The notes below the pieces were generated by a model, which was given only the letters and a program-made list of their open reading frames with translations, was not told where the DNA came from and made no database searches. The position numbers and the translations under genes are program-made. DNA of 37,880 bases from Candidatus Crickella caballi (GTDB lineage Bacteria > Bacillota > Clostridia > Peptostreptococcales > Anaerovoracaceae): assembly GCA_018064665.1 (NCBI GenBank), contig JAGHUV010000001.1, positions 1 through 37,880 on the forward strand, given 5' to 3'. Each line of letters starts with the position of its first letter. Position 1 is the first letter of the stretch. Below, piece after piece: positions 8,270 to 27,547 of this stretch.

Positions 8270-8280
8270 TTTTGTATAAT
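8252..8280 (+). promoter_or_regulatory. promoter of the fic-hsd operon
   Basis: TTGATA at 8252-8257, a 17-bp spacer and TATAAT at 8275-8280. The spacer contains the third operator-like copy, so a bound protein would block polymerase. Confidence 0.8.
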
Positions 8281-8310
8281 GCTATTAGAAACAAGAAGAA
8301 TGGAGAAAGT

Positions 8311-9366
8311 ATGCGTAATTATAATTTTGAAAAATGGGAAGACCTATTTACGAAAAATATAATATCGATGCTCACGCAGATTCATGAGTACAAGGGTGAA
8401 CAGAATTTGTTCATAGAGGCAAACCCTGATGCGCTCATTGAGCTGGTTGAGATTGCAAAAATTCAAAGTACCAAGGCATCAAATAGAATCGAAGGTATCT
8501 ACACAACAGACGATAGACTGCGTAAGATTGTTATGGACAAGACCATGCCTAAGACTAGAAGCGAGGAAGAAATTGCAGGCTACAGGGATGTGCTTAATAC
8601 TGTGCATGAAAACTTTGAGCATATTCCGATCATGTCATCTATTATTCTACAGCTTCATCGTGATTTGTATAAGTTTAACGGCGGAGAGACAGGTGGAAGA
8701 TTTAAGACAGCGGATAACATCATTGAAGAAACTGATGCTGAAGGAAATAAGGTGGTTAGATTCAGACCAGTGCCAGCCTGGGAAACTTCAGAATCATTAA
8801 ATGAACTTTGTGATGCATATGAGAGGACAATCAATGAACAGAAGGTAGACCCTCTTCTGATTATTCCAGTGTTCGTTCTTGACTTCTTATGCATACATCC
8901 ATTCAATGATGGCAACGGAAGAATGAGCAGATTGCTGACTCTGTTGCTGCTATATAAGGCAGGCTACATTGTAGGTAAATATATCAGCTTGGAGAAGATA
9001 ATAGAGAAGACGAAAGATACTTACTATGATGCTCTTCGGGAAAGTTCGCTGAACTGGCATGAAGGAACAAATGATTATAAGCCGTTTGTTGAATATACTT
9101 TAGGAATTATCCTTAATGCATATAGAGAATTCTCCGAAAGAGTTAATGTGCTGATTACAAAAAATCTTTCCAAGCCTGATCGCATAAGAGAGGTGATCAA
9201 GAGTAGGCTCGGAAAGATAACTAAACAAGAGATTCTCGAAGTGTGTCCGGATGTAAGTAAGACGACAATTGAAAGAACGCTTGTCAGATTACAGAAATCA
9301 AATGAAATAATTAAACTGGGCGGCGGACGTTATACTTCATACATTTGGAATAGAGAGGACGAATAA
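8311..9366 (+). CDS. Fic-domain protein with C-terminal winged helix
   Basis: Predicted 351 residues. The Fic active-site motif HPFNDGNGRMSR (residues 196-207) is complete, with catalytic H196; Fic enzymes usually transfer AMP from ATP to a protein hydroxyl. The N-terminal SNRIEG (57-62) fits the [S/T]xxxE[G/N] inhibitory helix of class II Fic proteins, with E61 as the inhibitory Glu. The C-terminus (about 300-345) is a winged-helix-like segment, TKQEILEVCPDVSKTTIERTLVRLQKSNEIIKLGGGRYT. An upstream in-frame ATG lies inside the -10 box, so the start is placed at 8311 after GGAGAAAG. The stop codon abuts the hsdM start, so it heads the type I RM operon. It may autoregulate via the three upstream repeats; target and role in defence are unknown. 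Confidence 0.9.
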   Translation: MRNYNFEKWEDLFTKNIISMLTQIHEYKGEQNLFIEANPDALIELVEIAKIQSTKASNRIEGIYTTDDRLRKIVMDKTMPKTRSEEEIAGYRDVLNTVHENFEHIPIMSSIILQLHRDLYKFNGGETGGRFKTADNIIEETDAEGNKVVRFRPVPAWETSESLNELCDAYERTINEQKVDPLLIIPVFVLDFLCIHPFNDGNGRMSRLLTLLLLYKAGYIVGKYISLEKIIEKTKDTYYDALRESSLNWHEGTNDYKPFVEYTLGIILNAYREFSERVNVLITKNLSKPDRIREVIKSRLGKITKQEILEVCPDVSKTTIERTLVRLQKSNEIIKLGGGRYTSYIWNREDE

Positions 9367-10869
9367 ATGATTACTGGAGAGCTTAAAAACAGAATTGATG
9401 GACTTTGGGATACATTTGCAGCGGGCGGACTGACAAATCCGCTGGAAGTAATTGAACAGATTACATACTTGATGTTTATCCACGACCTGGATGATGCTGA
9501 TAACACAAGAGCTAAAGAAAGTGCAATGCTAGGTCTGCCGTATAAAAGCATTTTCTCAGGTGAAGTTGAAATCGGAGAAAGAACTATAGACGGCAATCAG
9601 CTGAAGTGGTCAGTATTTCACGATATGCCAGCAGCTAAAATGTATTCTATCATGCAGGAGTGGGTATTCCCGTTTATCAAAGAACTGCATGGAAATAAAG
9701 AAAGTGCTTACTCAAAGTATATGGGCGATGCTATCTTCAAGCTTCCAACTCCACTTGTGCTTTCTAAGGTTGTGGATAGCCTTGATGAAATCTACAAATC
9801 AATGAGAGATGCGAAGGAGATGGATATCAGAGGTGATGTCTATGAATACCTTCTTTCAAAGATTGCATCTGCAGGTAGAAACGGTCAGTTCAGAACGCCT
9901 CGTCACATAATCAGAATGATGGTAGAACTTATGGATCCTGAAGCTGATGATGTTATATGTGATCCTGCCTGCGGAACATCAGGATTCCTGGTATCTGCAG
10001 CAGAGTATCTCAAGGAAACAAAGAAAGATGAAATATTCTACAACAAGGCCAAGAAAGAACACTACATGAATGGAATGTTCCATGGTTATGATATGGACAG
10101 AACAATGCTTCGCATTGGTGCAATGAATATGATGACTCATGGAATTGATAATCCGTTCATTGAATACAGAGATAGCTTGTCAGATCAGAATACCGACAGA
10201 GAGAAGTATTCGCTTATTCTTGCAAATCCACCATTCAAGGGTAGCCTTGATTATGATTCAGTAACACCGGATCTTCTTAAGATGTGTAAGACTAAGAAGA
10301 CAGAACTGCTCTTCCTGGCATTGTTCATTAAGATGCTTAAGGTTGGCGGAAGATGTGCGTGCATTGTTCCTGATGGAGTTCTGTTCGGTTCGTCAACAGC
10401 ACATAAGGCAATCAGAAAGCAGATCGTAGAAGAAAACAGACTTGAAGCTGTAATCTCAATGCCATCGGGTGTGTTTAAACCATATGCCGGAGTATCAACT
10501 GCGATTCTTATCTTCACAAAGACAGGACACGGCGGAACTGACAACGTATGGTTCTATGATATGCAGGCAGATGGTCTCAGCCTGGATGATAAGAGATCAC
10601 CAGTTAATGAAAATGACATTCCAGATATCATCGAAAGATTCCGGAATAGAGATAAAGAATTAGAAAGAGCACGTACTGAGAAATCATTCTTTGTAAAGAA
10701 AGATGAAATCAAGGACAATGACTATGACCTTTCAATCAACAAGTACAAGGAAGTTGAGTATGTGCCGGTAGAGTACCCATCAACACTTGAAATTATGACT
10801 GACATTCGTGAACTCGAGATGAAAATCGGTCAGGAGATGGACGAATTAGAAAAGTTATTGCAGTTATAA
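9367..10869 (+). CDS. hsdM: type I restriction-modification system DNA methyltransferase subunit M
   Basis: Predicted 500 residues, the usual HsdM size. It has an N-terminal helical HsdM_N region and an N6-adenine methyltransferase core with the SAM-binding motif DPACGTSGF (from D199) and catalytic NPPF (287-290). HsdM with HsdS methylates adenine at the target and forms the core of the HsdR2M2S1 complex. Its ATG immediately follows the fic stop, implying translational coupling. hsdS begins 24 bases after the stop, and the intervening leader is the first copy of a 25-bp repeat also found in front of the second hsdS. Confidence 0.96.
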   Translation: MITGELKNRIDGLWDTFAAGGLTNPLEVIEQITYLMFIHDLDDADNTRAKESAMLGLPYKSIFSGEVEIGERTIDGNQLKWSVFHDMPAAKMYSIMQEWVFPFIKELHGNKESAYSKYMGDAIFKLPTPLVLSKVVDSLDEIYKSMRDAKEMDIRGDVYEYLLSKIASAGRNGQFRTPRHIIRMMVELMDPEADDVICDPACGTSGFLVSAAEYLKETKKDEIFYNKAKKEHYMNGMFHGYDMDRTMLRIGAMNMMTHGIDNPFIEYRDSLSDQNTDREKYSLILANPPFKGSLDYDSVTPDLLKMCKTKKTELLFLALFIKMLKVGGRCACIVPDGVLFGSSTAHKAIRKQIVEENRLEAVISMPSGVFKPYAGVSTAILIFTKTGHGGTDNVWFYDMQADGLSLDDKRSPVNENDIPDIIERFRNRDKELERARTEKSFFVKKDEIKDNDYDLSINKYKEVEYVPVEYPSTLEIMTDIRELEMKIGQEMDELEKLLQL

Positions 10870-10892
10870 ATTCGGATTTGTAGGGATGATGA
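10868..10892 (+). repeat. hsdS leader repeat (site A), copy 1
   Basis: 25 bp identical to 13076-13100, with the core CGGATTTGTAGGGATGATGA. It spans the Shine-Dalgarno in front of hsdS and overlaps the end of hsdM. The GATTTGT(A/C)G(A/G)GATG portion resembles the central hsdS repeat. Confidence 0.85.
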
Positions 10893-10893
10893 G

Positions 10894-12048
10894 ATGGCAA
10901 AACTGATAGATATTACAGGCAAGGCTCTTGCGGGAGAATGGGGTTCTGATGATGAGACTGGTAACGGAGTACCAGTACTAAGAACAACCAATTTTACTAA
11001 TACGGGCGTTGTAGATTATAACAATGTGGTTACAAGAACCATCACAAAAAAGAAAATTGAAGAAAAGTACCTTCGTAAAGGGGACATTATCATTGAAAAA
11101 TCTGGCGGTAGTGATAAACAGCCAGTAGGCCGAGTGATTTATTTTGATGGACCAGATAATACCTATTTATTCAATAACTTCACAGGATTACTGAGGGTTA
11201 AAAATCAAGAGATATGGTATCCGCGGTATGTGTTTTATTCTCTCTTTTCAAACTATCGAAGAGGTGGAACAAGACCATATGAGAACAAAACCACAGGCCT
11301 TCATAATTTGAAAACAGATGATTATGTTTCTAGATATGAGGTGTCAGAAACTGATATGGCTACACAGATACAAATCTGTGACCGGCTTGATAGAATGTAT
11401 GGCATTATCAAAATGCGTCAGCAAGAGCTTCAAAAACTCGACGAGCTCATCAAAGCCCGATTTGTCGAGATGTTTGATGGAAAATATCCCGAGGATACAT
11501 TACTGCATCTATGTAATATTATTGATTATCGAGGTAAGACACCTGAAAAGGTTGAAAGTGGACTTCCGTTTATAACGGCTAAGAATGTCAAAATGCATTA
11601 TATGACATTGGAACCACGAGAGTACATATCCAAGGAGACATACGATAAGGTAATGGTAAGAGGCTTTCCAAAAGAGGGAGATGTTGTTTTCACAACAGAG
11701 GCACCGCTTGGAAATGTATGCAGAATTCCTCACTTTGATACGGAATTCTATATTGGTCAACGTATTGTAACTATGCAAACGGAAGCACTCAATCCGATCT
11801 ATTTGGAATATGCATTGTCCGATGATGAGTTCGTAAGAAAGTATATGAGTAAGTCATCTGGAAGTACAGTTACAGGAATTAGAGTGAGATTGCTGGAACA
11901 ACTAACAATTCCTGTGCCGCCAAGGGCTCTTCAGGATGAGTTCGCTTCATTTGTCAAACAAGTCGACAAATCTAAAGTTGTAGTGCAAAAGGCATTAGAC
12001 GAAACACAGTTGTTGTTTGATAGCTTAATGCAAGAGTATTTCGGATAG
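10894..12048 (+). CDS. hsdS: type I restriction-modification specificity subunit S (expressed copy)
   Basis: Predicted 384 residues with two target-recognition domains. TRD1 (about 1-165) is followed by a helix, MRQQELQKLDELIKARFVEMF; TRD2 (about 195-350) is followed by the C-terminal helix FVKQVDKSKVVVQKALDETQLLFDSLM. The two conserved helices set the TRD spacing and bind HsdM. It recognises a bipartite DNA target. The DNA encoding LIKARFVEMF and KQVDKSK is identical, including synonymous positions, to the second hsdS, while the TRDs differ, as expected when modules are exchanged by recombination. This is the likely expressed copy because it has both conserved helices and follows hsdM. Confidence 0.93.
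   Translation: MAKLIDITGKALAGEWGSDDETGNGVPVLRTTNFTNTGVVDYNNVVTRTITKKKIEEKYLRKGDIIIEKSGGSDKQPVGRVIYFDGPDNTYLFNNFTGLLRVKNQEIWYPRYVFYSLFSNYRRGGTRPYENKTTGLHNLKTDDYVSRYEVSETDMATQIQICDRLDRMYGIIKMRQQELQKLDELIKARFVEMFDGKYPEDTLLHLCNIIDYRGKTPEKVESGLPFITAKNVKMHYMTLEPREYISKETYDKVMVRGFPKEGDVVFTTEAPLGNVCRIPHFDTEFYIGQRIVTMQTEALNPIYLEYALSDDEFVRKYMSKSSGSTVTGIRVRLLEQLTIPVPPRALQDEFASFVKQVDKSKVVVQKALDETQLLFDSLMQEYFG
11446..11476 (+). repeat. hsdS central repeat (site B), copy 1
   Basis: 31 bp identical to 13617-13647, encoding LIKARFVEMF between TRD1 and TRD2. Its core GATTTGTCGAGATGTTTG (from 11459) is matched at 16 of 18 positions by the reverse complement of the 3' repeat at 11955-11972, so sites B and C are inverted relatives flanking TRD2. 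Confidence 0.88.
11955..11976 (-). repeat. hsdS 3' repeat (site C, inverted core), copy 1
   Basis: 22 bp identical to 14147-14168, encoding KQVDKSK. On the minus strand it reads GATTTGTCGACTTGTTTG, nearly the same as the central repeat core, so it probably is another recombinase target in opposite orientation. Confidence 0.85.
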
Positions 12049-12070
12049 TAAGGCGTAGCCGGTGTAGGAT

Positions 12071-12100
12071 GTCGGTATATTTTGAAAGGAGTGTACCGAT
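12071..12100 (+). promoter_or_regulatory. hairpin around the recombinase ribosome-binding site
   Basis: TCGGTA (12072-12077) pairs with TACCGA (12094-12099), placing the AAAGGAG Shine-Dalgarno in the loop and the ATG directly after the stem. This may limit translation of the recombinase. Confidence 0.45.
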
Positions 12101-13069
12101 ATGGATAATAAACTGGTTAACATACTGAATGAAATGGCTGAGTATCTTTCGATTCCTCAGATGAAAGTATTGCAAGAAACTTTGATTAAATATTTGTGCT
12201 ACGATGATGCGAAAAAGCAATCAATAGATAATTACGAATATCTCCAAATGTTTCTTGATGCCAAGCGAATTGAAGGTTGCTCTGAGAGAACAATAAAATA
12301 CTATGAAGATACAATCCGCCATTTCTTATCAAGGCAAGATGATACGATTCGCACTGTTACCACAGAGGAAATCAGATCATATCTTTCCTTGTACCAAGGG
12401 ATAAATAATTGCAGCAAGGTAACGGTAGACAATGTCAGACGAAATCTTTCGAGCTTTTTCTCCTGGCTTGAAGAAGAGGATCATATATTGAAGAGTCCTA
12501 TGCGGCGGATTCATAAAATCAAAACTAAGAAGCAGGTTAAAGATGTTATATCTGACGAGGAGATTGAGAAAATCAGAGATTGTTGTGACTCTAGCCGAGA
12601 TTTAGCAATGATAGATCTGCTGTACTCCACAGGTATGAGAGTTGGAGAACTGGTAAATCTAGATATAAGCGATGTGGACTTCGATGCAAGAGAATGTGTG
12701 GTTGCAGGCAAGGGAGATAAGGAACGAAAAGTTTACTTCGATGCCAAAACCAAACTTCATTTACAAACTTACTTGGATGAAAGAAAAGACTGCAATTCTG
12801 CGTTGTTTGTTTCTCTGAATGCTCCATATAACCGGTTGAAGATAAGCGGTGTAGAAATCAGAATTAGATCACTTGGCAAAGCTGCGAAATTAAGCAGAAT
12901 ACATCCGCATAAATTCAGAAGAACCATGGCAACAAGAGCAATAGACAAAGGAATGCCCATAGAACAAGTTCAGAAAATACTAGGGCATTCACAAATAGAT
13001 ACTACATTGCAGTATGCCATTGTAAATCAGAACAATGTGAAACTAGCGCATCAAAAGTTTATCTCCTAA
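12101..13069 (+). CDS. tyrosine recombinase of the hsdS locus (XerC-like specificity switch)
   Basis: Predicted 322 residues. An N-terminal SAM-like core-binding domain (about 45-130) precedes the catalytic domain, which holds the full set of tyrosine-recombinase residues: R180 (TGMRVGEL), the beta-hairpin Lys (GKGDKER), H270 and R273 (HPHKFRRT), H296 (LGHSQ) and the nucleophile Y305 (LQYA). Recombinases of this size and type are known beside hsdS in phase-variable type I systems, where they exchange TRDs between hsdS copies. Here it sits between two hsdS genes that point the same way. AAAGGAG precedes the start. Its function in hsdS switching is inferred from position and from the shared repeats; the alternative, an integrase of the whole island, is less likely. 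Confidence 0.93.
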   Translation: MDNKLVNILNEMAEYLSIPQMKVLQETLIKYLCYDDAKKQSIDNYEYLQMFLDAKRIEGCSERTIKYYEDTIRHFLSRQDDTIRTVTTEEIRSYLSLYQGINNCSKVTVDNVRRNLSSFFSWLEEEDHILKSPMRRIHKIKTKKQVKDVISDEEIEKIRDCCDSSRDLAMIDLLYSTGMRVGELVNLDISDVDFDARECVVAGKGDKERKVYFDAKTKLHLQTYLDERKDCNSALFVSLNAPYNRLKISGVEIRIRSLGKAAKLSRIHPHKFRRTMATRAIDKGMPIEQVQKILGHSQIDTTLQYAIVNQNNVKLAHQKFIS

Positions 13070-13075
13070 ATCTGC

Positions 13076-13100
13076 AAATTCGGATTTGTAGGGATGATGA
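13076..13100 (+). repeat. hsdS leader repeat (site A), copy 2
   Basis: 25 bp identical to 10868-10892; starts 6 bases after the recombinase stop and carries the ribosome-binding region of the second hsdS. Confidence 0.85.
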
Positions 13101-13103
13101 TGT

Positions 13104-14189
13104 ATGAAATTAAATGAGATATGTGAAGTGTATTCTGGTTATGCTCTTAAATCATTTAATGATGTTAAAGATGGGCTACCGGTTGTAAAGATCGGAAATA
13201 TACATACAGACGGAACACTTAATCTTGAAGAGTGCCAATATACAAGTGATGTTGTAAGTGAAAAGTATTATTCTCAAAAAGACGATATTTATATTGCTCT
13301 TTCAGGTGCAACAACTGGAAAAATAGGAAAAATGGACACTGCCGAAAGGTATGTAATAAATCAGCGAGTTGGAATTGTTAGGAAAAAATCTGATAATGTT
13401 CCACAAGAGTATATTAAATATTTTCTATTAAGACAGACTAATAGAATACTTCAAGATGCTGCAGGATGTGCACAACCTAATATCAGTCCAAAGCAAATTG
13501 CAGAGTATATAGTTCCAGATACTTCAGAAGAGAAGATGGTGGAAATCTGCAAGATTCTAGAAAAAACAAAGAATATTATTGATAGCCGCAAAGCTGAACT
13601 TATAGCATTAGATGAACTCATCAAAGCCCGATTTGTCGAGATGTTTGGTGACCAGAGAACAAATCCTTTTGAGATAACAAAGGGTACCTTAAAGGATGTT
13701 GCAGATATATATCTGGGATTAACACATACGCCAGAATATGTTGATTCGGGAAAACCTTTTCTTTCTGTTCGTGATATCAGTTCAGGCGTAATAGATTTTT
13801 CAAATTGTCATTATATTACAGAAGATGAGTTTTATTCTCTGCCCAAAGGAGCCCGTCCAAGGGAACATGATTTACTGTTTTGTAGGGTTGGAACTATCGG
13901 AAAACCAGTGATAATCCCCGAAGGAACTCCTGAATTTGGCACTTTTGTAAGTGTTGGTTTTCTACGCAAGAAAGATAACGTGCTTAACACGTACCTGAAG
14001 GCGTGGATGGAAAATGATTGCTTTATGGAGCAAGTTTATCAAAATGTCAAAGGGGCATCACAGGTTAATTTAAATACAGGATGGTTAAAAGAATTTGAAA
14101 TACTGATGCCATCAATGGAGATGCAAATTGAGTTTGATAACTTCTGCAAACAAGTCGACAAATCTAAATTTATCAATTACATTGCGTAA
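13104..14189 (+). CDS. hsdS: second type I specificity subunit S, C-terminally shortened donor copy
   Basis: Predicted 361 residues, with two TRDs (about 1-155 and 190-340) different from those of the first copy, and the same central helix LIKARFVEMFG. The protein ends soon after KQVDKSK with FINYIA, so it lacks the distal helix (VVVQKALDETQLLFDSLM in the first copy) that normally closes the HsdS ring. Homology stops exactly at site C, which suggests a cassette whose 3' end was defined by recombination. It has its own ATG and a copy of the leader repeat, so it might be translated, but it probably serves mostly as a TRD reservoir. hsdR starts 60 bases downstream. Confidence 0.9.
   Translation: MKLNEICEVYSGYALKSFNDVKDGLPVVKIGNIHTDGTLNLEECQYTSDVVSEKYYSQKDDIYIALSGATTGKIGKMDTAERYVINQRVGIVRKKSDNVPQEYIKYFLLRQTNRILQDAAGCAQPNISPKQIAEYIVPDTSEEKMVEICKILEKTKNIIDSRKAELIALDELIKARFVEMFGDQRTNPFEITKGTLKDVADIYLGLTHTPEYVDSGKPFLSVRDISSGVIDFSNCHYITEDEFYSLPKGARPREHDLLFCRVGTIGKPVIIPEGTPEFGTFVSVGFLRKKDNVLNTYLKAWMENDCFMEQVYQNVKGASQVNLNTGWLKEFEILMPSMEMQIEFDNFCKQVDKSKFINYIA
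13617..13647 (+). repeat. hsdS central repeat (site B), copy 2
   Basis: 31 bp identical to 11446-11476 at the TRD1/TRD2 border of the second hsdS. Confidence 0.88.
14147..14168 (-). repeat. hsdS 3' repeat (site C, inverted core), copy 2
   Basis: 22 bp identical to 11955-11976. Sequence similarity to the first hsdS ends here, and the reading frame stops seven codons later. Confidence 0.85.
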
Positions 14190-14249
14190 GCAGTTACAAT
14201 ATAAAACATTTATTAAATGGCCTATTTAGGCAAACACGAGGAATCAGAA

Positions 14250-17200
14250 ATGAGTAATTTTGACTTCTTAACAAATGAAAAACAGTTCGAAGCATTTGCA
14301 GGTGTGGCAATATCTGCAGAGAAGATTATCAGCATTGATACCGAGGCTAGTGCAATTAATTGCAGAAGGGCAATGGAGTTTGCAATTAAGTGGATGTATT
14401 CGGTAGATGCTTCTCTTGAGATGCCATATCAGGACAATCTTGTAAGTCTTATGAATAGCGAGGACTTTAGAGAAATAGTCGGTATAGATATTTGGAGGAG
14501 ACTCGATCTCATAAGACGAATTGGCAATAATGCTGCGCATACGAACAAGAAGATAACTTATGATCAGGCAGAGCTGTGCCTTAAGAATCTGCATATCTTC
14601 CTTGATTTTGTTGCGTACTGCTATGCAGATAACTACATTGAAACAGAATTCAATGAGAACCTTCTTGGGGCATCAGAACATGCAAAGTCTGATGCAACTG
14701 CACAGCTTGAACTTGATTTAAAGAAGCTGATTGCTGAGAATAAGTCACTTAAGGATGAACTGACTAGCAAGAGAGAAAAGCAGCAGGAAACATATAATCC
14801 TAAGCCACTTGACTTATCCGAGTACAAGACCAGAAAGATATATATCGACACTATGCTTCAGGATGCAGGGTGGCAGGAAGGAAACACATGGCTTAATGAA
14901 GTTGAACTTCCTGGAATGCCTAATAAGTCTGAAGTAGGTTTTGCAGACTATGTCCTATATGATGATTCGCATAAACCACTTGCGGTAATCGAAGCTAAGA
15001 GAACTTGCGTGGATGTTGCAAAGGGAAGACAACAGGCAAAGCTGTATGCAGATATAATTGAAAAGCAGTGTGGAAGAAGGCCGGTAGTATTTTTAACTAA
15101 TGGTTTTGAAACACGAATTATAGACAACCAGTATCCAGAGAGAAGAGTTTCAGCAATCTATTCGAAGAGGGATTTAGAGAAACTATTCAACCTTCAGTCA
15201 ACAAAAAGCAGTCTGGCTTTTATTGAGGTTAAAAAGGATATCGCAGGCAGATATTATCAGGAAGCTGCAATCAGAGCTGTATGCGAGAACTTTGATAAGA
15301 AGAACCGCAGGAAAGCTCTGCTTGTAATGGCAACTGGATCTGGAAAGACCAGAACGGTAATCGCATTAACTGATGTTCTGCTTAATGCTGGCTGGATTAA
15401 AAATGTTCTCTTCCTTGCGGATAGAAATTCACTGGTAACACAGGCAAAGAGAAGCTTTGCAAATCTGCTACCAGATTTGTCGGTAACTAATCTTTGCGAG
15501 GAAAAAGACAACTACAATGCTCATTGTGTTTTCTCAACGTACCAGACAATGATGAACTGCATTGATTCAGTTCAGGATGAACAGGGCAAGTTGTTTACCT
15601 GTGGACATTTTGACTTGATTATCTGTGACGAAGCCCACAGATCCATATACAACAAATACAAAGATATCTTCAATTACTTTGATGCTCCGCTTGTTGGATT
15701 AACAGCGACACCGAAGGATGAGATTGACAAGAATACCTATGAGGTGTTTGAGCTTGAAAATGGCGTGCCTACCTATGGTTACGAACTGGCACAAGCGGTT
15801 AAGGATGGATACCTCGTTGACTATCTGTCAGTGGAAACTAAGTTGAAATTCATAGAGCAGGGTATTGCCTATGAAGATCTGACGGAGGAAGAGAAAGAAG
15901 AATACGAGAACACTTTTGAAGATGAGGATGGAAAGCTTCCGGAAAGAATTGAGTCATCTGCACTTAACACCTGGATTTTCAATGTGGATACAATTAAACA
16001 TGTTCTCCACATTCTGATGACAGAAGGTATTCGTATCAATTATGGTGAGCGAGTAGGTAAGACAATTATTTTTGCAAAGAACCATGATCACGCGGAGAAG
16101 ATTCTTGAAGTATTCAACAAAGAGTATCCACATCTTCCTGGTTTTGCAAAGGTTATAGATAACTACATGACCTATGCTCAGAGTGCAATTGATGAGTTCT
16201 CAGATCCAAATAAACTGCCTCAGATAGCCATCTCAGTTGATATGCTGGATACAGGAATTGATGTTCCGGAAGTAGTCAACCTTGTATTCTTCAAGAAGGT
16301 TATGAGTAAAGCTAAATTCTGGCAGATGATTGGGCGTGGAACAAGACTTTGCGAAGGACTGATTGACGAAGTTGATAAGGACAAGTTCTATATCTTTGAT
16401 TTCTGCGGAAACTTCGAGTTCTTCAGAATGAACAAAGGCAAAGCAACTGCCAATATGATTGCCCTTCAGGGGGCGATATTCAACCTGAGGTTCCAGATGG
16501 CATATAAGTTGCAGGATATAAACTATCAGACTGATTATCTGATTTCATATAGAAAAGACTTGGTAGACATTCTTGTTGAAAATGTAAGCAGACTTAATAG
16601 AGAAAACTTCGCAGTAAGGCAGCATCTTAAATATGTGGATCAGTATTCGCATAATGCTAATTATGATGCATTGACTTATGAAGATACATTGATGGTGAGA
16701 GAGGAACTTGCACCATTGATTCTTCCGGAAGAAGATGAGATTTCAGCTGTAAGATTCGACGCACTTGTATATGCAATAGAACTTGCGTATCTGGCTGGAC
16801 AGAAGAATAATCGTGCGAGAAAAGACCTGTTAAAGCGAGTTAATGCTGTTGCAGGCGTGGCAAACATACCGGAAATTCAGGCAAAGACAGACCTTATAAA
16901 GAAGGTTGCAGAAACAGATTACGTTGATAATGCTGATATAAATGATTTTGAGCATATTAGAACAGAGCTTCGCCATCTGATGAAGTACATTCCAAAGGGC
17001 CCAAAGATCATTTATGACACCCACTTTGATGATGACATCCTTTCTATTGATTGGAAAGAATCTGAACTAGAAAATGATGAACTTAAGAACTACAAGGCAA
17101 AGGCTGAGTTCTATGTTAGACAGCACCAGGATCATCTGGTAATAGCTAAGTTAAAGACAAATAAGCCGCTTACAGCAGTAGATGTCAAGACGCTTGAAAG

Positions 17201-17543
17201 TATTTTGTGGAGTGAAGTTGGTTCAAAGGAAGACTATGAAAAGGAATACGGAGAGAAGCCGCTTGGCGAATTCGTTCGTGAGATTGTTGGACTTGATATG
17301 AATGCAGCTAAGGAAGCCTTTGCAGAATTCCTTAATGAGTCAAATCTTGATAGTAGACAGATTTATTTCGTTAATCAAATAGTAGAATACATCGTTCACA
17401 ACGGAATGATGAAAGACCTGTCAGTGCTTCAGGAATCACCATTCACAGATAAGGGCAGCGTAGTAGAATTATTCCAGGATTTGAATGTCTGGATGGGAAT
17501 ACGTAAGGTAATAGATCAGATAAACGCTAATGCAGTAGCGTAG
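14250..17543 (+). CDS. hsdR: type I restriction-modification restriction subunit R with N-terminal DUF4145-like domain
   Basis: Predicted 1097 residues. Residues 1-125 are a DUF4145/HEPN-like helical domain (FEAFAGVAISAEKIISIDTEASAINCRRAMEFAIKWMY ... RRIGNNAAH). A PD-(D/E)xK nuclease follows, with D233 (GFADYVLYDD) and E248-x-K250 (VIEAKRT). Then comes an SF2 translocase: Walker A ATGSGKT (361-367), DEAH (460-463), GLTATP, and WQMIGRGTRL. The C-terminal 350 residues resemble the EcoEI R C-terminal domain. HsdR translocates DNA and cuts unmodified DNA far from the target. The start at 14250 follows GAGG; an in-frame ATG at 14217 lacks one. Full length and motif-complete, so apparently active. 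Confidence 0.95.
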   Translation: MSNFDFLTNEKQFEAFAGVAISAEKIISIDTEASAINCRRAMEFAIKWMYSVDASLEMPYQDNLVSLMNSEDFREIVGIDIWRRLDLIRRIGNNAAHTNKKITYDQAELCLKNLHIFLDFVAYCYADNYIETEFNENLLGASEHAKSDATAQLELDLKKLIAENKSLKDELTSKREKQQETYNPKPLDLSEYKTRKIYIDTMLQDAGWQEGNTWLNEVELPGMPNKSEVGFADYVLYDDSHKPLAVIEAKRTCVDVAKGRQQAKLYADIIEKQCGRRPVVFLTNGFETRIIDNQYPERRVSAIYSKRDLEKLFNLQSTKSSLAFIEVKKDIAGRYYQEAAIRAVCENFDKKNRRKALLVMATGSGKTRTVIALTDVLLNAGWIKNVLFLADRNSLVTQAKRSFANLLPDLSVTNLCEEKDNYNAHCVFSTYQTMMNCIDSVQDEQGKLFTCGHFDLIICDEAHRSIYNKYKDIFNYFDAPLVGLTATPKDEIDKNTYEVFELENGVPTYGYELAQAVKDGYLVDYLSVETKLKFIEQGIAYEDLTEEEKEEYENTFEDEDGKLPERIESSALNTWIFNVDTIKHVLHILMTEGIRINYGERVGKTIIFAKNHDHAEKILEVFNKEYPHLPGFAKVIDNYMTYAQSAIDEFSDPNKLPQIAISVDMLDTGIDVPEVVNLVFFKKVMSKAKFWQMIGRGTRLCEGLIDEVDKDKFYIFDFCGNFEFFRMNKGKATANMIALQGAIFNLRFQMAYKLQDINYQTDYLISYRKDLVDILVENVSRLNRENFAVRQHLKYVDQYSHNANYDALTYEDTLMVREELAPLILPEEDEISAVRFDALVYAIELAYLAGQKNNRARKDLLKRVNAVAGVANIPEIQAKTDLIKKVAETDYVDNADINDFEHIRTELRHLMKYIPKGPKIIYDTHFDDDILSIDWKESELENDELKNYKAKAEFYVRQHQDHLVIAKLKTNKPLTAVDVKTLESILWSEVGSKEDYEKEYGEKPLGEFVREIVGLDMNAAKEAFAEFLNESNLDSRQIYFVNQIVEYIVHNGMMKDLSVLQESPFTDKGSVVELFQDLNVWMGIRKVIDQINANAVA

Positions 17544-17557
17544 AGGGGAGAGAATAT

Positions 17558-19336
17558 ATGCAAACCAACGATAGAAACTTGACGGACTTAATGGCATCTG
17601 TGCATTCAGCAAAAGCACAACTTCCGGATTTTCAAAGAGGTTGGGTTTGGGATGATGATAGAATAAAGGCATTAATAGCAAGTATAACAAGTAATTATCC
17701 TGTCGGAGCAGCTATGTTCCTGGCTTATGGAAATGAAGATATTCGTTTTAAGTATAGAACAATAGAAAATGTTCAGGCAACGAATGTTGTTCCTGATGAA
17801 CTTATTCTTGATGGCCAGCAACGACTAACTTCGATTTATTCATCTCTATACAGCAAGTTGCCTGTACGAACACATACAGAAAAGAATAAGAACAAGGATA
17901 TCTATAGATATTATTATATTGATATAGCAAAGGCGATTGACCCGGATGTTGATAGAACTGATGCTATTATTTCCATTTCTTCTGACCGAGTAATTACATC
18001 AGATTTTGGTAGAGTAGTTGAGATGGACTTATCTACTCGAGAAGCGGAATTCAAGAATAAAATGTTCCCGTTAAATATAATTCTCGATTTTGTGGAATGC
18101 CAAAAGTGGCAAAATGAATACTATGCATTCCACGAATATGATTCTACCGTTATCCAAGAGTTTACAAAGTTTAATAATGAAATCGTGATGGTCACATATC
18201 AATACAAGATGCCAGTTATCCTATTGGATAAAGATACACCAAAGGAAGCCGTGTGTCAGGTGTTTGAGAATGTGAATACGGGAGGAGTTTCCCTCACTGT
18301 TTTTGAACTTGTAACAGCAATATTTGCCATGGACGACTTCGAGTTAAGAAAGGATTGGGAGGAAAAGAAAGAAAACTATTTCAGTGGAGATATTCTTGAT
18401 ATTGTTGAGGCTACAGATTTCTTAACTGCTTGTACTCTGTATTCACAATATATATCTGGAGTAACATTAAGTTGCAAGAAGAGGGATATACTGGATCTTA
18501 AACTTACGGATTATAAGAAGTATGCAGATGTGATTGTAAAAGGTTTTGTTGAGGCGGAATCAATTCTTCAGGAGGAAAGAATCTTTTCAAGCAGAGATTT
18601 GCCTTATAGCACTCAACTCATACCAATGGCTACATTGTGCGCGCTGCTTTTGGACAACAATAAGATAAAGTCTACCAATGTCAAGAAGGCAATAAAGCAG
18701 TGGTACTGGTGTGGTGTAATGGGTGAATTATACGGAGGTGCAAATAACAGCAGATATGCAAACGATGTCAAAGGCGTAATGGACTGGGTGAAGAACTCAA
18801 ATGATTTGCCTAAAACAATACTTGATGCATATTTTAGCCCAATGAGATTGCTTGGCCTTCAATCAAGGCAAAGTGCTGCATATAAAGGTATCATGGCGCT
18901 CATATTACAGAACCATCCAAAGGATTTCATTTCTGGTAAAGAAATGGATTTTGCAGTATATAAAAGCGAGTATGTTGATATTCATCATGTTTTCCCTAAA
19001 GACTATTGTGAAAAGCAGAATTACCCGAAGAAAAAGTGGAATTCTGTTGTGAACAAAACGCCGATTACATATTCAACAAATCGAGAAATCGGTGGGGTTG
19101 CACCAAGCGCATACCTATCTAAGATTGAGAACAAAAAGCAAGTGAACACAGATGATTTGAATGCGTATTTGGATTCGCATTTCATTGATCATGATATGGC
19201 AAGGAAGAATCAGTTTAATGAATACTTTTTAAATCGTGCAAAAGCACTCTTGGACTTAATTGAAAATGTCATGGGGAAACCTATCTCTGGAAGAGATAGC
19301 GAAGACGTTACATCATCATTTGGAGGAACGCTATAA
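17558..19336 (+). CDS. DUF262 + HNH (GmrSD/BrxU-like) restriction-type protein
   Basis: Predicted 592 residues. The N-terminus is a DUF262 (ParB/GmrS-like) nucleotide-binding domain: LPDFQRGWVWDDDRIKALIASI and LILDGQQRLTSIY with D85-G-Q-Q-R89. The C-terminus carries an HNH-like site, DIHHVFPKDYCEK (474 onward), followed by NKTPITYSTNREIGG, as in DUF1524/GmrD-type nucleases. Such fusions include type IV enzymes that restrict modified phage DNA (GmrSD, BrxU). It starts 14 bases after hsdR behind GAGGGGAGAG, so it belongs to the same operon and would complement the type I system by attacking DNA that carries modified bases. The exact substrate is unknown. Confidence 0.88.
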   Translation: MQTNDRNLTDLMASVHSAKAQLPDFQRGWVWDDDRIKALIASITSNYPVGAAMFLAYGNEDIRFKYRTIENVQATNVVPDELILDGQQRLTSIYSSLYSKLPVRTHTEKNKNKDIYRYYYIDIAKAIDPDVDRTDAIISISSDRVITSDFGRVVEMDLSTREAEFKNKMFPLNIILDFVECQKWQNEYYAFHEYDSTVIQEFTKFNNEIVMVTYQYKMPVILLDKDTPKEAVCQVFENVNTGGVSLTVFELVTAIFAMDDFELRKDWEEKKENYFSGDILDIVEATDFLTACTLYSQYISGVTLSCKKRDILDLKLTDYKKYADVIVKGFVEAESILQEERIFSSRDLPYSTQLIPMATLCALLLDNNKIKSTNVKKAIKQWYWCGVMGELYGGANNSRYANDVKGVMDWVKNSNDLPKTILDAYFSPMRLLGLQSRQSAAYKGIMALILQNHPKDFISGKEMDFAVYKSEYVDIHHVFPKDYCEKQNYPKKKWNSVVNKTPITYSTNREIGGVAPSAYLSKIENKKQVNTDDLNAYLDSHFIDHDMARKNQFNEYFLNRAKALLDLIENVMGKPISGRDSEDVTSSFGGTL

Positions 19337-20781: not shown

Positions 20782-20941
20782 CGAAAATATGTGTGCTTAA
20801 AGGATGAGAAAAATAATCAAATGGTTCAAAGTGTTCAATGACAAACTGTTAGATTGAATGAAGTCAATGGGTTTCACAACGATGTAAAAGTAAATCAAAA
20901 AGATGGAACAAGATAAGAAGCCTCAAAAAGGGATGAAGAAA

Positions 20942-23170
20942 ATGGATGAATTAAAATTACAACTAAAGAACTGTTATGGAATACAAGAGATGGAAACACA
21001 GCTTGATTTCTCTAATAATAACGTTGCTATTATATATGCCCCAAATGGCACAATGAAATCCTCTTTGGCTAAGACGTTTGCTTCATTAAGAGACCATGTT
21101 CCTGTTGAGGAGAAGGTCTTTGGTTTTAAAAGTGAATGTAGCATCACGGACGAGCAGGGATTGGATATTTCTGAAAAAGAAATTATTGTAATTAATCCAT
21201 TTGATGAGAACGGATTTGAAGAGCAAGGTTTGCTTATGGCAAATGACATTTTGCGTAGGAAGTATTTGAATATTCATAAAACGATAGAAGAAAAGAAGGA
21301 AGCGCTGTATGCTCAGATAAAAGAGGCATTAGGATATTCTTCTCGTAGTAATTTTGAAGTTAAGAAAACCATGCTGAGAGATTGGAATAAAAACACTAAC
21401 GAAGAATATTCTTGTTTGGTAGAAATAAAGAGCTTATTGAAATCTTCACACATGACATGTTCCCTAAAAGAGTGTGAGATAGATTATAATGTGTTGTTTA
21501 ACGATAAAGTAGTTGCTTTGTTAAAGGCTGGCAACACTTCTGATTTAATTGCAGAGTATGAAGAAAAATATAGTGAATTGGTTAATAAATCACTTTATAT
21601 GCGGCAAGGAGTTATAGACCATAACAATTATGGAAACATAAGTGATTCATTAAGTAATAATGGATTTTTTGCTGCTGATAATGAAGTGATATTAAAGGCA
21701 AAAGATGGCAGTGATAGAATAATTGTGAAAGGACAGAGTCAGTTAGATGATTTAATTAAGAAAGAGAAAGAAAAGGTATTAAATACAAAAGAAATAAAAG
21801 ACTTATTTGAAAAAATTAACAAAGCGTTTGCAAAGAATAAAGATACCCAAGCATTTAATGCGTTTTTACAAGACCATCAGGAAATTGTTCCAGAATATAA
21901 GAACCTAGAGCAATTTAAGAAAAAAGTATGGATTAAAGTTTTTAAGGAACGTGAGCAATTACTAATAGATCTTCTGAAAGAATACGACAAAGCACAGTTT
22001 GATTTGAAGATGATTAGAGATGCTGCTAAAAATGAAGTTACTGATTGGATGAAAGCATTAGAATTGTTTAAGGAACGATTTTATGTTCCGTTTATGATAG
22101 AAACGTCAAATCAAGATGATGTTATTCTAAATATGGATTTACCAAGTTTTAAGTATACTTTTTCTGATGATAGAGGTGATAAAGAAGTTACAAAAGAAAG
22201 CCTACTGAATGTGTTAAGTACAGGCGAGAGACGTGCATATTATATTTTGAATATGATTTTTCAGATATTAGTCGCGAAAAAGAACGGTCAAGAAAGTCTA
22301 CTCGTTTTAGACGATATATCTGAATCGTTTGATTATAAAAACAAATATGCGATAATTGAATATATTAAAGATATATCAGAATACACAGATGCCAATGACG
22401 AAAAGATTTTTAAGATTTTATTGTTAACACACAATTTTGATTTTTATAGAACTGTTGCATCACGAATAACAAAGAGGGGGAATTCGTATATTGCTTTTTC
22501 TGATTGCGGAACAATAAAACTTGAAAGAGGGCATTATACTAAAAACCTTTTTAGCAATTATAAAGACAGATTGCTTAAAGACTACACCGATAAAATTATG
22601 CTTGCATCTATACCATTCGTTAGAAATTTGATTGAGTACACAGAAGGAAGTGAACATCCGGATTATTTATTACTAACAAATGTTTTGCATTATAAACCGG
22701 ACACGAGAACAATTACCTTGGAACAGATTCAAAAGATTTTTAATGATCATTGGTTTAGAAATGAAAAGTTGAAATTTGCGTTGGGAAGAGAAAATGAAAG
22801 AGTTTACGATGTTATTATGTCGGAAAGTGAACGTATAGATAATGTTGAAAAAATAGAAATAGAAAGCAAGTTAATCCTCTCGATGGCAATAAGACTAAAG
22901 GCGGAACTGTATATGAAGAACAAGATAGTATCTAATTTGCCAGACGGGAATAATATTATTCGCGAAATATACTCCAAGAAAAGTCAAAGCGGAAGAATGC
23001 TAGCAACGTATAAAGCCCATATAAATGATAGTTCAATGAATACTTTAGAACTTGTTGCTATGATGACACCAGAAAACATTCACATAAATTCTTTTATGTT
23101 TGAACCAATTTTGGATATGTCACTAAAACATCTATATGATTTATATCAAGATGTAAAGAATTTAGCATGA
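20942..23170 (+). CDS. solitary ABC-type ATPase, RM-associated phage-defence type
   Basis: Predicted 742 residues; no named gene recognised. An N-terminal P-loop of the form APNGTMKSS (A33 to S41) follows LDFSNNNVAIIY. A long helical middle (about 90-400) separates it from an ABC signature LSTGER (425-430) and Walker B LLVLDDISESFD with D457 and D458; a D-loop/H-loop-like LLLTHNFDF follows. This split architecture is that of SMC/Rad50-like and RloC/PrrC-like ATPases, and proteins with a YAPNG.MK(T/S)S P-loop are often next to type I RM genes. No anticodon-nuclease motif was recognised in the C-terminal 200 residues. The start at 20942 is chosen for AAGGGA 8 bases upstream; 20903 is possible but lacks one. 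The gene is clearly more AT-rich than its neighbours, suggesting separate acquisition. Confidence 0.8.
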   Translation: MDELKLQLKNCYGIQEMETQLDFSNNNVAIIYAPNGTMKSSLAKTFASLRDHVPVEEKVFGFKSECSITDEQGLDISEKEIIVINPFDENGFEEQGLLMANDILRRKYLNIHKTIEEKKEALYAQIKEALGYSSRSNFEVKKTMLRDWNKNTNEEYSCLVEIKSLLKSSHMTCSLKECEIDYNVLFNDKVVALLKAGNTSDLIAEYEEKYSELVNKSLYMRQGVIDHNNYGNISDSLSNNGFFAADNEVILKAKDGSDRIIVKGQSQLDDLIKKEKEKVLNTKEIKDLFEKINKAFAKNKDTQAFNAFLQDHQEIVPEYKNLEQFKKKVWIKVFKEREQLLIDLLKEYDKAQFDLKMIRDAAKNEVTDWMKALELFKERFYVPFMIETSNQDDVILNMDLPSFKYTFSDDRGDKEVTKESLLNVLSTGERRAYYILNMIFQILVAKKNGQESLLVLDDISESFDYKNKYAIIEYIKDISEYTDANDEKIFKILLLTHNFDFYRTVASRITKRGNSYIAFSDCGTIKLERGHYTKNLFSNYKDRLLKDYTDKIMLASIPFVRNLIEYTEGSEHPDYLLLTNVLHYKPDTRTITLEQIQKIFNDHWFRNEKLKFALGRENERVYDVIMSESERIDNVEKIEIESKLILSMAIRLKAELYMKNKIVSNLPDGNNIIREIYSKKSQSGRMLATYKAHINDSSMNTLELVAMMTPENIHINSFMFEPILDMSLKHLYDLYQDVKNLA

Positions 23171-23421: not shown

Positions 23422-24896
23422 ATGGTAATAGGTATGGAGATTTACTCAGAAATCCGCAGAGCCTATCTTTCAGGTGAATCACAGCGGTCTATCGCCAATA
23501 GACTTGGCGTATCTAGACAGACGGTCAAGAAATATTGCGAGGGGGAAACTGTTCCCGGTGAACGCAAAGAATATTTACGAGAACCGACTGTCGTTACTGA
23601 CGAAGTTAAATCATTTATTAAAGATTGCCTGGAATACGACCAGCAATCACATTTGAAAAAGCAGCAGCACACAGCTAAGAGAATCTATGATCGTCTGGTT
23701 GATGAGCTCGGATTCGAAGGTTCGTATAGCATTATTCGTCTTGCAGTACGAGAGCTAAAGAATCAATATGTTCCGGCTCAAGCTGATGTGCCTCTTGAAT
23801 TTGACCCTGGTGATGCAATTCAGATCGACTGGGGCGAAGTTCAAATTTATCTCAACAACAAGCGCATTACAGCAAATATCTTTTGTGGCAGACTTTGCTA
23901 CAGTTGCGACATATTCGTCATGGCCTGCTTCAGTCAGAACGCTGAGAGCTTTCTTGAAGCACAGCAGCGCATGAGTATTTCGGTGGTGTCCCTAGAAGGC
24001 TCATCTTTGACAATGCCAAGGTTGCAGTCAAGGAAGGCTTTGGGTCACATGCGCAGCCACAAACAGATTACAAGAACTTTGCTGCTCATTATGTATTCAA
24101 TACAGATTTCTGTAATCCGGCCAGCGGTAACGAGAAAGGCCTGGTAGAAAACCTGGTTGGTTATGCCAGAAGAAATTTCTTCGTGCCTCTGCCGAAAGTT
24201 TCATCTATGGATGAACTTAATGAGCAACTCATAAATAAATGCCTAAATTACAGAGCGAAACATAAAGTTGAAAGCAGATCTGCAACTGTTAGCGTTCTCT
24301 ATGAACAGGAAAAGGCATACCTGCATAAGATCGCACCATACAAGTACGACACTGCAAAAATAACTACACCTACAGTCGGCGATTTCTCAACAGTTAAATT
24401 CGACAGAAACAGTTACTCCGTACCAATCAAATATCTGAGAAAGACCGTCACTGTAAAAGGTTATGCAAATTCAATCAACATAATCTGTGATGACCACACT
24501 GTTGTCACTCATGAACGCCTGCAGGGCCAAGGAAATACCTCCTACAAGCTAGAACACTATCTCGATCTTCTTGAAAGAAAACCTAGAAGTGTTTTCCAGG
24601 CTAAACCTGTCAGACATAACGTTCGCCAAGAACTACTGAACTGGGGACAGAAGCTCCCTGGTGGTAACAAGGAAATGGTTCGCTTGTTACGTCTATGTGT
24701 AGACTATGGCGAGACTACGATCCTTGACATACTGAACTCTCTCCCTGGAGGAGTCACCCCATCTGTAGACCTTGTTCGAAGTTATCTGGTAAACAGTCAA
24801 GAACGTTCATTACAAGAACGATTCGTTGATGAGATACCGGTTAATGCCATTGATCTAACTTACTACGACAAGAAATGCGGGGTGGTAGCAGTATGA
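23422..24896 (+). pseudogene. istA: IS21 transposase istA, frameshifted
   Basis: Starts with AAGGAGG and an ATG at 23422. The N-terminal half has the IS21 HTH (SGESQRSIANRLGVSRQTVKKYCEG) and the beginning of the DDE core (FDPGDAIQIDWGE). At about 23973 the frame changes: the continuation (EYFGGVPRRLIFDNAKVAVKEGFG, then GNEKGLVENLVGYARRNF with the DDE Glu) lies in another frame, consistent with loss of one G. The second part runs to 24896 and overlaps istB by ATGA. As written no full transposase is made, so the copy should be inactive unless the shift is a sequencing error. Confidence 0.9.
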
Positions 24897-27466: not shown

Positions 27467-27547
27467 AATCATCAATATTTTTGCAACTGGTGATGAAACA
27501 AAAAAGCATAATAATGCAGATGTTTAATAAATATGGAGAGAAAACAC

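What the first reader, a model, noticed from the sequence alone, without database searches (positions are those of the whole stretch)
10868..14168. Direct-orientation hsdS switching locus with three site classes
Two hsdS genes on the same strand flank a tyrosine recombinase and share repeats only at module borders: leader (A, 25 bp), centre (B, 31 bp) and 3' end (C, 22 bp). Known switching loci mostly use inverted hsdS copies. Here A x A, B x B or C x C exchange would excise a 2.2-kb circle with the recombinase and leave one chimeric hsdS; re-insertion at another site would shuffle TRDs, giving up to four TRD pairings.
Basis: partly seen in the sequence, partly recalled or inferred. Interest (0 to 1): 0.85.

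Follow-up and report, generated by a model that had tools for sequence, protein, structure and literature searches.

The report
Three-key cassette switch for restriction specificity
This bacterium carries a DNA-shuffling device that probably cuts out and re-inserts parts of a restriction enzyme's targeting gene at three matched kinds of site, so that daughter cells can defend and mark their DNA with different sequence patterns; the same device occurs in dozens of related species.

Summary
Two same-strand hsdS genes flank a Xer-like recombinase between hsdM and hsdR and share exact repeats at leader (A, 25 bp), centre (B, 31) and 3' end (C, 22). Excision and re-insertion is the likely mechanism, but it is already published for the pneumococcal SpnIV/tvr locus (PMC6265443). 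What looks new is the design, found in about 60 loci, mostly Lachnospiraceae and other Firmicutes by record title. (1) A, B and C are one site type (half-sites CAA../TTTGT) around a 6-bp spacer that differs between classes (0 of 306 comparisons equal) but matches within a locus: A 39/46, B 51/51, C 54/54. (2) Slot 1 has the conserved HsdS C-terminal helix after C in 53/54 loci, slot 2 in 3/54: slot 2 looks like a store. (3) Similar cassettes of different species sit in different slots as often as in the same slot. (4) A covarying hairpin covers the recombinase start codon. (5) In some relatives the predicted circle carries toxin- or TIR-like genes. Like-by-like exchange gives four in-frame TRD pairings in slot 1. 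Live switching was not observed. New variant of a known kind.

The parts
8272..9366 (+). Fic/DOC-family protein, upstream neighbour; also next to hsdM in many relatives; outside the excisable part
   Evidence: Pfam Fic 1.2e-14; fic-M order in relatives
9367..10869 (+). hsdM, N6-adenine methyltransferase subunit
   Evidence: Pfam N6_Mtase 2.4e-68; PADLOC MTase_I 9.9e-187
10868..10892 (+). site A1 (leader); spacer TTCGGA 10871-10876, arm TTTGT 10877-10881
   Evidence: exact 25-bp repeat; site model
10894..12048 (+). hsdS1, slot 1 (inferred expression slot), two TRDs plus the conserved C-terminal tail after C1
   Evidence: Pfam Methylase_S 2.9e-16; tail
11446..11476 (+). site B1 (centre); spacer GCCCGA 11455-11460
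   Evidence: exact 31-bp repeat
11955..11976 (-). site C1 (3' end), shared core on the opposite strand; spacer (read on -) TTTAGA at 11971-11976
   Evidence: exact 22-bp repeat; core orientation
12069..12102 (+). 15-bp hairpin that takes in the Shine-Dalgarno and the first two bases of the recombinase start codon
   Evidence: -20 kcal/mol, z -3.9; covariation in relatives
12101..13069 (+). tyrosine recombinase (Xer-like), 322 aa
   Evidence: Pfam Phage_integrase 6.8e-37, NCBIfam recomb_XerA_Arch 2e-74, PDB XerA 1.7e-25
13076..13100 (+). site A2; spacer TTCGGA
   Evidence: exact repeat
13104..14189 (+). hsdS2, slot 2 (inferred store), two TRDs, no conserved tail
   Evidence: Pfam Methylase_S 1.4e-15; tail SKFINYIA
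13617..13647 (+). site B2; spacer GCCCGA
   Evidence: exact repeat
14147..14168 (-). site C2; spacer (read on -) TTTAGA
   Evidence: exact repeat
14217..17543 (+). hsdR, type I restriction subunit
   Evidence: Pfam ResIII, EcoEI_R_C, HSDR_N; PADLOC REase_I 8e-159

Best explanation
[quoted passage not shown] The Xer-like recombinase would act on one site type (half-sites CAA../TTTGT around a 6-bp spacer) placed at the leader (A), centre (B) and 3' end (C) of each hsdS. Because spacers match within a class and differ between classes, only AxA, BxB and CxC should go to completion. Any of these excises a ~2.2-kb circle with the recombinase and slot 1's tail. Re-insertion at another class swaps the N-terminal TRD, the C-terminal TRD or both between slots, giving four in-frame hsdS alleles in slot 1, which keeps the constant leader and tail. 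Slot 2 is a tail-less store. While the circle is out, the chromosome has only a tail-less hsdS, perhaps a low-activity state. A hairpin over the recombinase start codon would keep switching rare. Shown by computation: gene content, sites, spacer rule, frames, tails, hairpin, cassette slot differences between species. Inferred: catalysis, circle formation, re-insertion, expression from slot 1 only, reduced activity without tail, throttling.
For: Spacer identity within a locus (repeated genomes removed): A 39/46, B 51/51, C 54/54, against 14/46, 45/51, 41/54 with the nearest recombinase neighbour; all 8 unusual B and all 12 unusual C spacers are shared by both copies; 0 of 306 cross-class comparisons equal. 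Partner shuffles (2000) reach at most 16, 43, 42 against 40/47, 52/52, 57/57 (three repeated genomes included). Frames agree 51/51 at B and 54/54 at C; tail motif in slot 1 53/54, slot 2 3/54. Similar cassettes of different loci: N 68 pairs in different and 64 in the same slot, C 41 and 35, N-C 5 of 214. Lachnoanaerobaculum L069 v L076: one N-cassette stretch 97% identical in the opposite slot, one C-cassette stretch 84%, edges at the sites. L053: exact 522-bp N-cassette copy from A to B. Same-genus G031: an hsdM-side contig and a tail-less hsdR-side contig overlap by 31 bp that span the B site, no recombinase hit in the bin; G050 has contiguous hsdM, tail-less hsdS, hsdR. Experimental precedent: tvr.
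Against: No switching, circle or expression was observed. Seven of 46 A pairs have different spacers (three, L030, L072, L083, look like mis-assigned sites in cut genes). Excess identity right of the TTTGT arm fades only slowly (5-19 points over ten bases in C), which gene conversion could also give. Site-like sequences occur in single hsdS genes without recombinase (L107, L110, L114, L118), and three of these four have the full tail, so sites are not exclusive to switching loci. One of 19 B-pattern hits lies outside hsdS (L112). L013 and L057 have the tail in both slots, L078 only in slot 2. L069 and L076 share only one N and one C cassette; the other four have no partner. The recombinase side that holds the window includes three inverted loci, and the fork between the sides is weakly supported (83/93 and 86/50). 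Contig ends: 15 of 22 hand-listed ends within 125 nt of a site (31% expected, p 3e-4), but only 2 of 22 within 20 nt (p 0.33); two of the 22 (L061, L100) start with the same sequence. The G031 split could be an ordinary assembly fault.
Confidence: 0.8

Rival explanations
1. Static or rarely exchanged duplicate: the second hsdS and the recombinase came in with a mobile element, and identity at B and C reflects conserved protein motifs plus occasional homologous gene conversion.
For: B and C encode conserved HsdS motifs; site-like sequences occur in single hsdS genes without recombinase; no live rearrangement was seen.
Against: A lies before the start codon yet co-varies within loci most strongly (39/46 v 14/46 with the nearest neighbour); unusual spacer variants in B and C are always shared by both copies (8/8, 12/12); the recombinase is kept between hsdS genes in many genera; cassette differences between species and within L053 have edges at the sites.
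Confidence: 0.1
2. Inversion system caught in the direct state: because the shared core of C is opposite to A and B, AxC or BxC exchange inverts modules as in ordinary hsdS inverters.
For: Core orientation; three loci on the window's side of the recombinase tree have an inverted second hsdS (L071, L096, L102); L102 has a palindromic A site with spacer TTCGAA.
Against: Spacers of A, B and C are never equal inside a locus (0 of 306; A and C can differ by a single base); 61 of 64 labelled loci on this side of the tree are direct; AxC or BxC inversion would put TRDs on the non-coding strand (inference).
Confidence: 0.06
3. Phase switch of activity rather than specificity: excision gives an OFF (tail-less hsdS), re-insertion at the same site gives ON, and slot 2 rarely matters.
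For: Every modelled excised chromosome has tail 2; a tail-less hsdM-hsdS-hsdR state exists in G050 and probably in G031.
Against: Three site classes and in-frame store cassettes would not be needed; similar cassettes sit in either slot in different species.
Confidence: 0.04

Closest known systems
SpnIV / translocating variable restriction (tvr) locus of Streptococcus pneumoniae (Kwun et al. 2018, PMC6265443; seen: abstract, sections 3, 14, 18, part 1 of 21, and found passages)
   Same: All hsd genes on one strand; recombinase between hsdS genes, between hsdM and hsdR; short direct repeats of more than one type sharing a core; loci with four TRD segments alternate between four specificities; in 2+2 loci only the upstream hsdS was active; a hairpin before the recombinase; toxin-antitoxin-like genes beside it (here in relatives, not in the window).
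   Different: tvr has two repeat types (midpoint ~18 bp, tail end ~70 bp) and the TRD segment next to hsdM did not move, perhaps for lack of a 5' repeat; here a leader site A would free it. All tvr repeats have one orientation; here the core of C is reversed. tvr has a terminator-like attenuator and phd-doc homologs; here the hairpin covers the start codon and the window has no such pair. Whether TvrR and the tvr cores are related by sequence to these was not tested.
Inverting hsdS loci (SpnIII/ivr; Listeria monocytogenes CC8 hsd locus, PMC4783014, found passages; REBASE survey PMC7394358, found passages)
   Same: Recombinase between duplicated hsdS genes, repeats at the 5' end and centre of hsdS, in-frame TRD exchange.
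   Different: Those use oppositely oriented hsdS and inverted repeats; here direct. The REBASE survey searched for identical 20-bp tiles in the opposite orientation, so it would miss this type.
XerC/XerD-dif type sites (recalled, from no call)
   Same: Two inverted half-sites around a 6-bp spacer; Xer-like recombinase.
   Different: Three spacer classes in one locus; no sign of a role in chromosome dimer resolution was looked for.

Membership tests
Type I restriction-modification system | hsdM, hsdS with two TRDs, hsdR in one run | tested here: met
Xer-like tyrosine recombinase | Phage_integrase family and R-K-HxxR-H-Y residues | tested here: met
   residues picked by eye in the XerA alignment (TGMRVGEL, GKGD, HPHKFRRT, LGHS, TTLQY), the motif itself is recalled
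tvr-type excision/re-insertion hsdS locus | all hsdS on one strand around a recombinase, between hsdM and hsdR | tested here: met
tvr-type excision/re-insertion hsdS locus | more than one type of direct repeat with a common core | tested here: met
   the core of C lies on the other strand, unlike tvr
tvr-type excision/re-insertion hsdS locus | recombinase-dependent circular intermediates and shuffled junctions | not testable with these tools
   needs reads or PCR
tvr-type excision/re-insertion hsdS locus | toxin-antitoxin-like pair next to the recombinase | tested here: not met
   absent in the window (hsdS1 ends at 12048, recombinase starts at 12101); other families in that place in relatives
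tvr-type excision/re-insertion hsdS locus | recombinase orthologous to TvrR | not tested
   no TvrR sequence was fetched
Inverting hsdS (ivr type) | second hsdS on the opposite strand with inverted repeats | tested here: not met
   the inverted pairs between hsdS1 and hsdS2 that match the sites are the 18-nt B-C cores (I8, I11)

The most novel reading that the evidence does not exclude
A widespread, apparently undescribed family of hsdS switches in Lachnospiraceae and other Firmicutes. One recombinase uses three mutually incompatible 6-bp spacer keys, one per module border, so that cassettes can be exchanged between a fixed leader-and-tail expression slot and a tail-less store without scrambling module order. 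The excised circle leaves a tail-less hsdS, works as a temporary low-activity state, and in many species carries toxin-like or TIR effector genes that make its loss costly. Recombinase translation is throttled by a start-codon hairpin.
Probability: 0.5. Interest if true: 0.82.

Novelty: new variant of a known kind. Interest (0 to 1): 0.72.

Why it matters
If right, direct-repeat hsdS shuffling is not a pneumococcal oddity but a common arrangement in gut-type Firmicutes that an inverted-repeat survey such as PMC7394358 would miss. It gives a natural test of overlap-identity rules in tyrosine recombination (three keys, one enzyme), predicts up to four methylomes per strain from one sequence, and shows how one locus can hold an expression slot and a store. 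It may also link specificity switching to toxin and TIR cargo on an excisable circle.

Tried and rejected
Reading C as an inversion partner of A and B was considered when the shared core was found, then set aside because spacers are never equal between classes and the products would be non-coding. Reading the recombinase-less hsdM-hsdS-hsdR loci as excised states was tested by tail: L162 (= L107, G050) and the hsdR-side contig of G031 are tail-less; L161, L163, L164 (= L110, L114, L118) have the full tail and are probably ordinary single systems. Contig ends as a sign of mixed populations: suggestive only; the 24 ends were picked by hand, the distance for L095 is, and L111 and L121, which were fetched by a B pattern, are left out of the p-values. 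A DNA operator instead of an RNA hairpin at the recombinase start: G-U pairs are frequent (e.g. 9, 13 and 6 cells at single pairs), which favours RNA, but a dual role is not excluded. The hairpin covariation is not uniform: 'pairs with a change on both sides' was 7 against 5.4 in shuffles (32 of 500 as high), and leaders chimeric between loci still score 7 or more in 34% of cases against 78% for real ones and 10% for shuffled ones. No Rfam family matched 10000-15000. Of the 67 loci called direct, L001 is the window itself, L007, L010 and L011 repeat L032, L059 and L058, and L022, L023, L025 are cut loci that fall with the inverted loci in the tree; 60 remain. (gaps), 58 and 63 started from 63 loci, these three included; still holds the three repeated genomes, so its pair counts are slightly inflated. 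Literature: eight searches listed no title or abstract start that describes a direct three-site hsdS family outside pneumococcus; five papers were opened, in part. PMC6722419 (streptococci) holds the search words but was not opened. The library is open-access only.
Full report
Observation. The window holds fic - hsdM - hsdS1 - recombinase - hsdS2 - hsdR on the + strand. The two hsdS share three exact repeats at equivalent positions: A 25 bp (10868, 13076), B 31 bp (11446, 13617), C 22 bp (11955, 14147). The longest shared word in 300 dinucleotide shuffles was 14. The genome is 1.449 Mb in 42 contigs with one strong copy of the recombinase; three other matches are weak (E 3.6e-11 to 5.8e-5). 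One genome of the same family, G220 (locus L012), agrees in contig length and place with the Mogibacterium kristiansenii locus L071; the window's own name is not known.

One site, three keys. All six sites contain GATTTGT, on + in A and B and on - in C. Position weight matrices on 66 loci (three repeated genomes and three cut loci of the inverted clade included) assigned sites in 109 (A), 113 (B) and 119 (C) of 132 hsdS regions each. They show half-sites CAA(A/C) and TTTGT around six bases: A mostly TTGAGA or TTCGGA, B GCCCGA, C (reverse strand) TTTTGA. The left half-site is the looser one; in the window it reads TAAA in A1 and C2. The window's spacers are TTCGGA, GCCCGA and TTTAGA. With repeated genomes removed, the six bases are identical between the two copies in 39 of 46 (A), 51 of 51 (B) and 54 of 54 (C) loci; against the nearest locus by recombinase similarity the figures are 14, 45 and 41. 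Partner shuffling, with the repeated genomes still in, gave 40/47, 52/52, 57/57 against maxima of 16, 43, 42 in 2000 shuffles. All 8 non-standard B and all 12 non-standard C spacers are shared by both copies, and none of 306 A-B, A-C or B-C comparisons inside a locus is identical, though A and C can differ by one base. Seven A pairs differ; three of them (L030, L072, L083) look like mis-assigned sites in cut genes. Identity falls at once left of the spacer in C (49% within, 46% between loci) but more gently on the right, where an excess of 5-19 points persists over ten bases. This is what overlap-dependent tyrosine recombination should leave, and it is hard to get from protein constraint alone, since A lies before the start codon; gene conversion is not excluded.

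Expression slot and store. After C, slot 1 continues into the conserved HsdS C-terminal helix (...VAVQKALDETQLLFDSLMQEYFG) in 53 of 54 loci; slot 2 has it in 3 of 54 (L013 and L057 in both slots, L078 only in slot 2). B is in the same frame in both copies in 51 of 51 loci and C in 54 of 54. A symbolic model of like-by-like excision and re-insertion has four closed states, all with the tailed slot 1, and four excised chromosomes, all tail-less. In tvr loci of the 2+2 kind only the upstream hsdS was active (PMC6265443, section 21).

Signs of exchange in nature. Among 212 cassettes (101 N, 111 C; three repeated genomes included) 214 pairs are similar over 70% of their length; those between loci lie in different slots as often as in the same slot (N 68 and 64, C 41 and 35), while N-C pairs are 5. 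Lachnoanaerobaculum orale (L069) and L. sp. OBRC5-5 (L076) have flanks of 86-92% identity, but an N-cassette in slot 2 of the one is in slot 1 of the other (97% over 607 bp), and a C-cassette in slot 1 of the one is in slot 2 of the other (84% over 632 bp), with edges at the sites; their other four cassettes have no partner. L053 has a 522-bp exact copy of one N-cassette in both slots, from A to B. In same-genus genome G031 one contig (fic, hsdM, N-part) ends and another (C-part with tail-less end, hsdR) begins inside B; they overlap by 31 bp that span the site, and the bin has no recombinase hit at E 1e-30. G050 has contiguous hsdM, tail-less hsdS, hsdR. These fit BxB or other excision but could also be assembly loss or decay. 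Contig ends near sites: 15 of 22 hand-listed ends lie within 125 nt of a site, 31% expected, p 3e-4; within 20 nt 2 of 22, p 0.33.

Spread. In a tree of 101 recombinases one side holds 61 direct, 3 inverted and 20 unlabelled loci, the other 14 inverted, 1 direct and 1 unlabelled, besides one long outlier; the fork between them is weakly supported, and sampling was by similarity to the window, so this says nothing on overall frequency. Two of the 13 plasmid records with a relative, in Lactococcus and Ligilactobacillus, were opened with annotation and have half hsdS genes on the opposite strand; a third, of Fusobacterium, has no annotated features. The B pattern CAAAGCNCGATTTGTCGA occurs in 12 of 345 family genomes, 19 places (two in the window), 18 of them in hsdS.

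Recombinase control and cargo. Before the recombinase a 15-bp hairpin takes in the Shine-Dalgarno and the start codon (-20 kcal/mol, z -3.9). In 61 of 63 loci z is below -2 by mononucleotide shuffles. On an alignment of 60 leaders, 62 cells change on both sides against 23 (sd 3.9) in shuffles, none of 500 as high, and slid versions give 1 to 20; the count of pairs with such a change is less telling (7 against 5.4, 32 of 500 as high), and relatedness inflates the shuffle test. No Rfam match. In 38 of 63 loci more than 300 bases separate hsdS1 and the recombinase; three of these are the cut loci of the inverted clade and in L053 hsdR lies there. Genes seen in that place in relatives include DUF3990 proteins with a frequent partner, nucleotidyltransferase pairs, DUF3800, RhuM and CAP12/Pycsar TIR proteins (clusters; ten examples scanned, two). 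In the window nothing lies there.

Comparison. The mechanism class is known: SpnIV/tvr shuffles hsdS by TvrR-driven excision and re-insertion through circles at direct repeats (PMC6265443; abstract, sections 3, 14, 18, part 1 of 21 and passages seen). Differences here: a third, leader site, so the hsdM-side TRD could move; spacer classes; the tail-less store; reversed core of C; start-codon hairpin. Listeria CC8 and the loci of the REBASE survey use inversion (PMC4783014, PMC7394358, passages). A full-text search for hsdS, recombinase, Lachnospiraceae and phase variation gave 0 papers; the search for excision, reintegration, hsdS and circular gave three, all on streptococci, of which two were opened. 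I therefore file it as a new variant of a known kind, with live switching still to be shown.

Noticed in passing
12069-12102: Covarying hairpin over the Shine-Dalgarno and start codon of the recombinase, also in nearly all direct relatives examined; no Rfam match.
   Followed up: yes
L036:5032-5951, L058:5275-5940, L059:3703-4524, L038:4887-5945; L062:8156-8867: DUF3990 pair, TIR (CAP12/Pycsar), DUF3800 and RhuM genes between hsdS1 and the recombinase in relatives, so on the predicted circle; in L062 a nucleotidyltransferase pair lies after hsdS2, outside it.
   Followed up: partly
L102:4821-7939: Same side of the recombinase tree but second hsdS inverted; its A site ACAAATTCGAATTTGT is a perfect palindrome with spacer TTCGAA, so it would have no direction.
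   Followed up: partly
L053:495-8117: hsdR lies between hsdS1 and the recombinase, so excision would take hsdR along; the two N-cassettes are identical over 522 bp.
   Followed up: partly
L099:6970-9204: Open frame of 745 codons labelled HsdS in slot 2, about twice the normal length; perhaps extra cassettes in a row.
   Followed up: no
17558-19336: GmrSD N-terminal domain protein (Pfam 1.3e-28; PADLOC HEC-05 8.9e-22) right after hsdR.
   Followed up: no
20903-23170: 755-aa protein with a very strong match (760 bits) to the candidate defence family PDC-S46 of PADLOC, no Pfam match at 0.001.
   Followed up: no
23422-24896: Transposase-like pieces (weak helix-turn-helix matches, Mu transposase C-terminal domain), probably an insertion element.
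   Followed up: no
31714-33036: Bacterial serpin (Pfam 2.1e-60), next to a 1379-aa beta-helix/fn3 protein at 27533-31672.
   Followed up: no
35151-36422: SurE and isochorismatase domains in one 423-aa protein.
   Followed up: no
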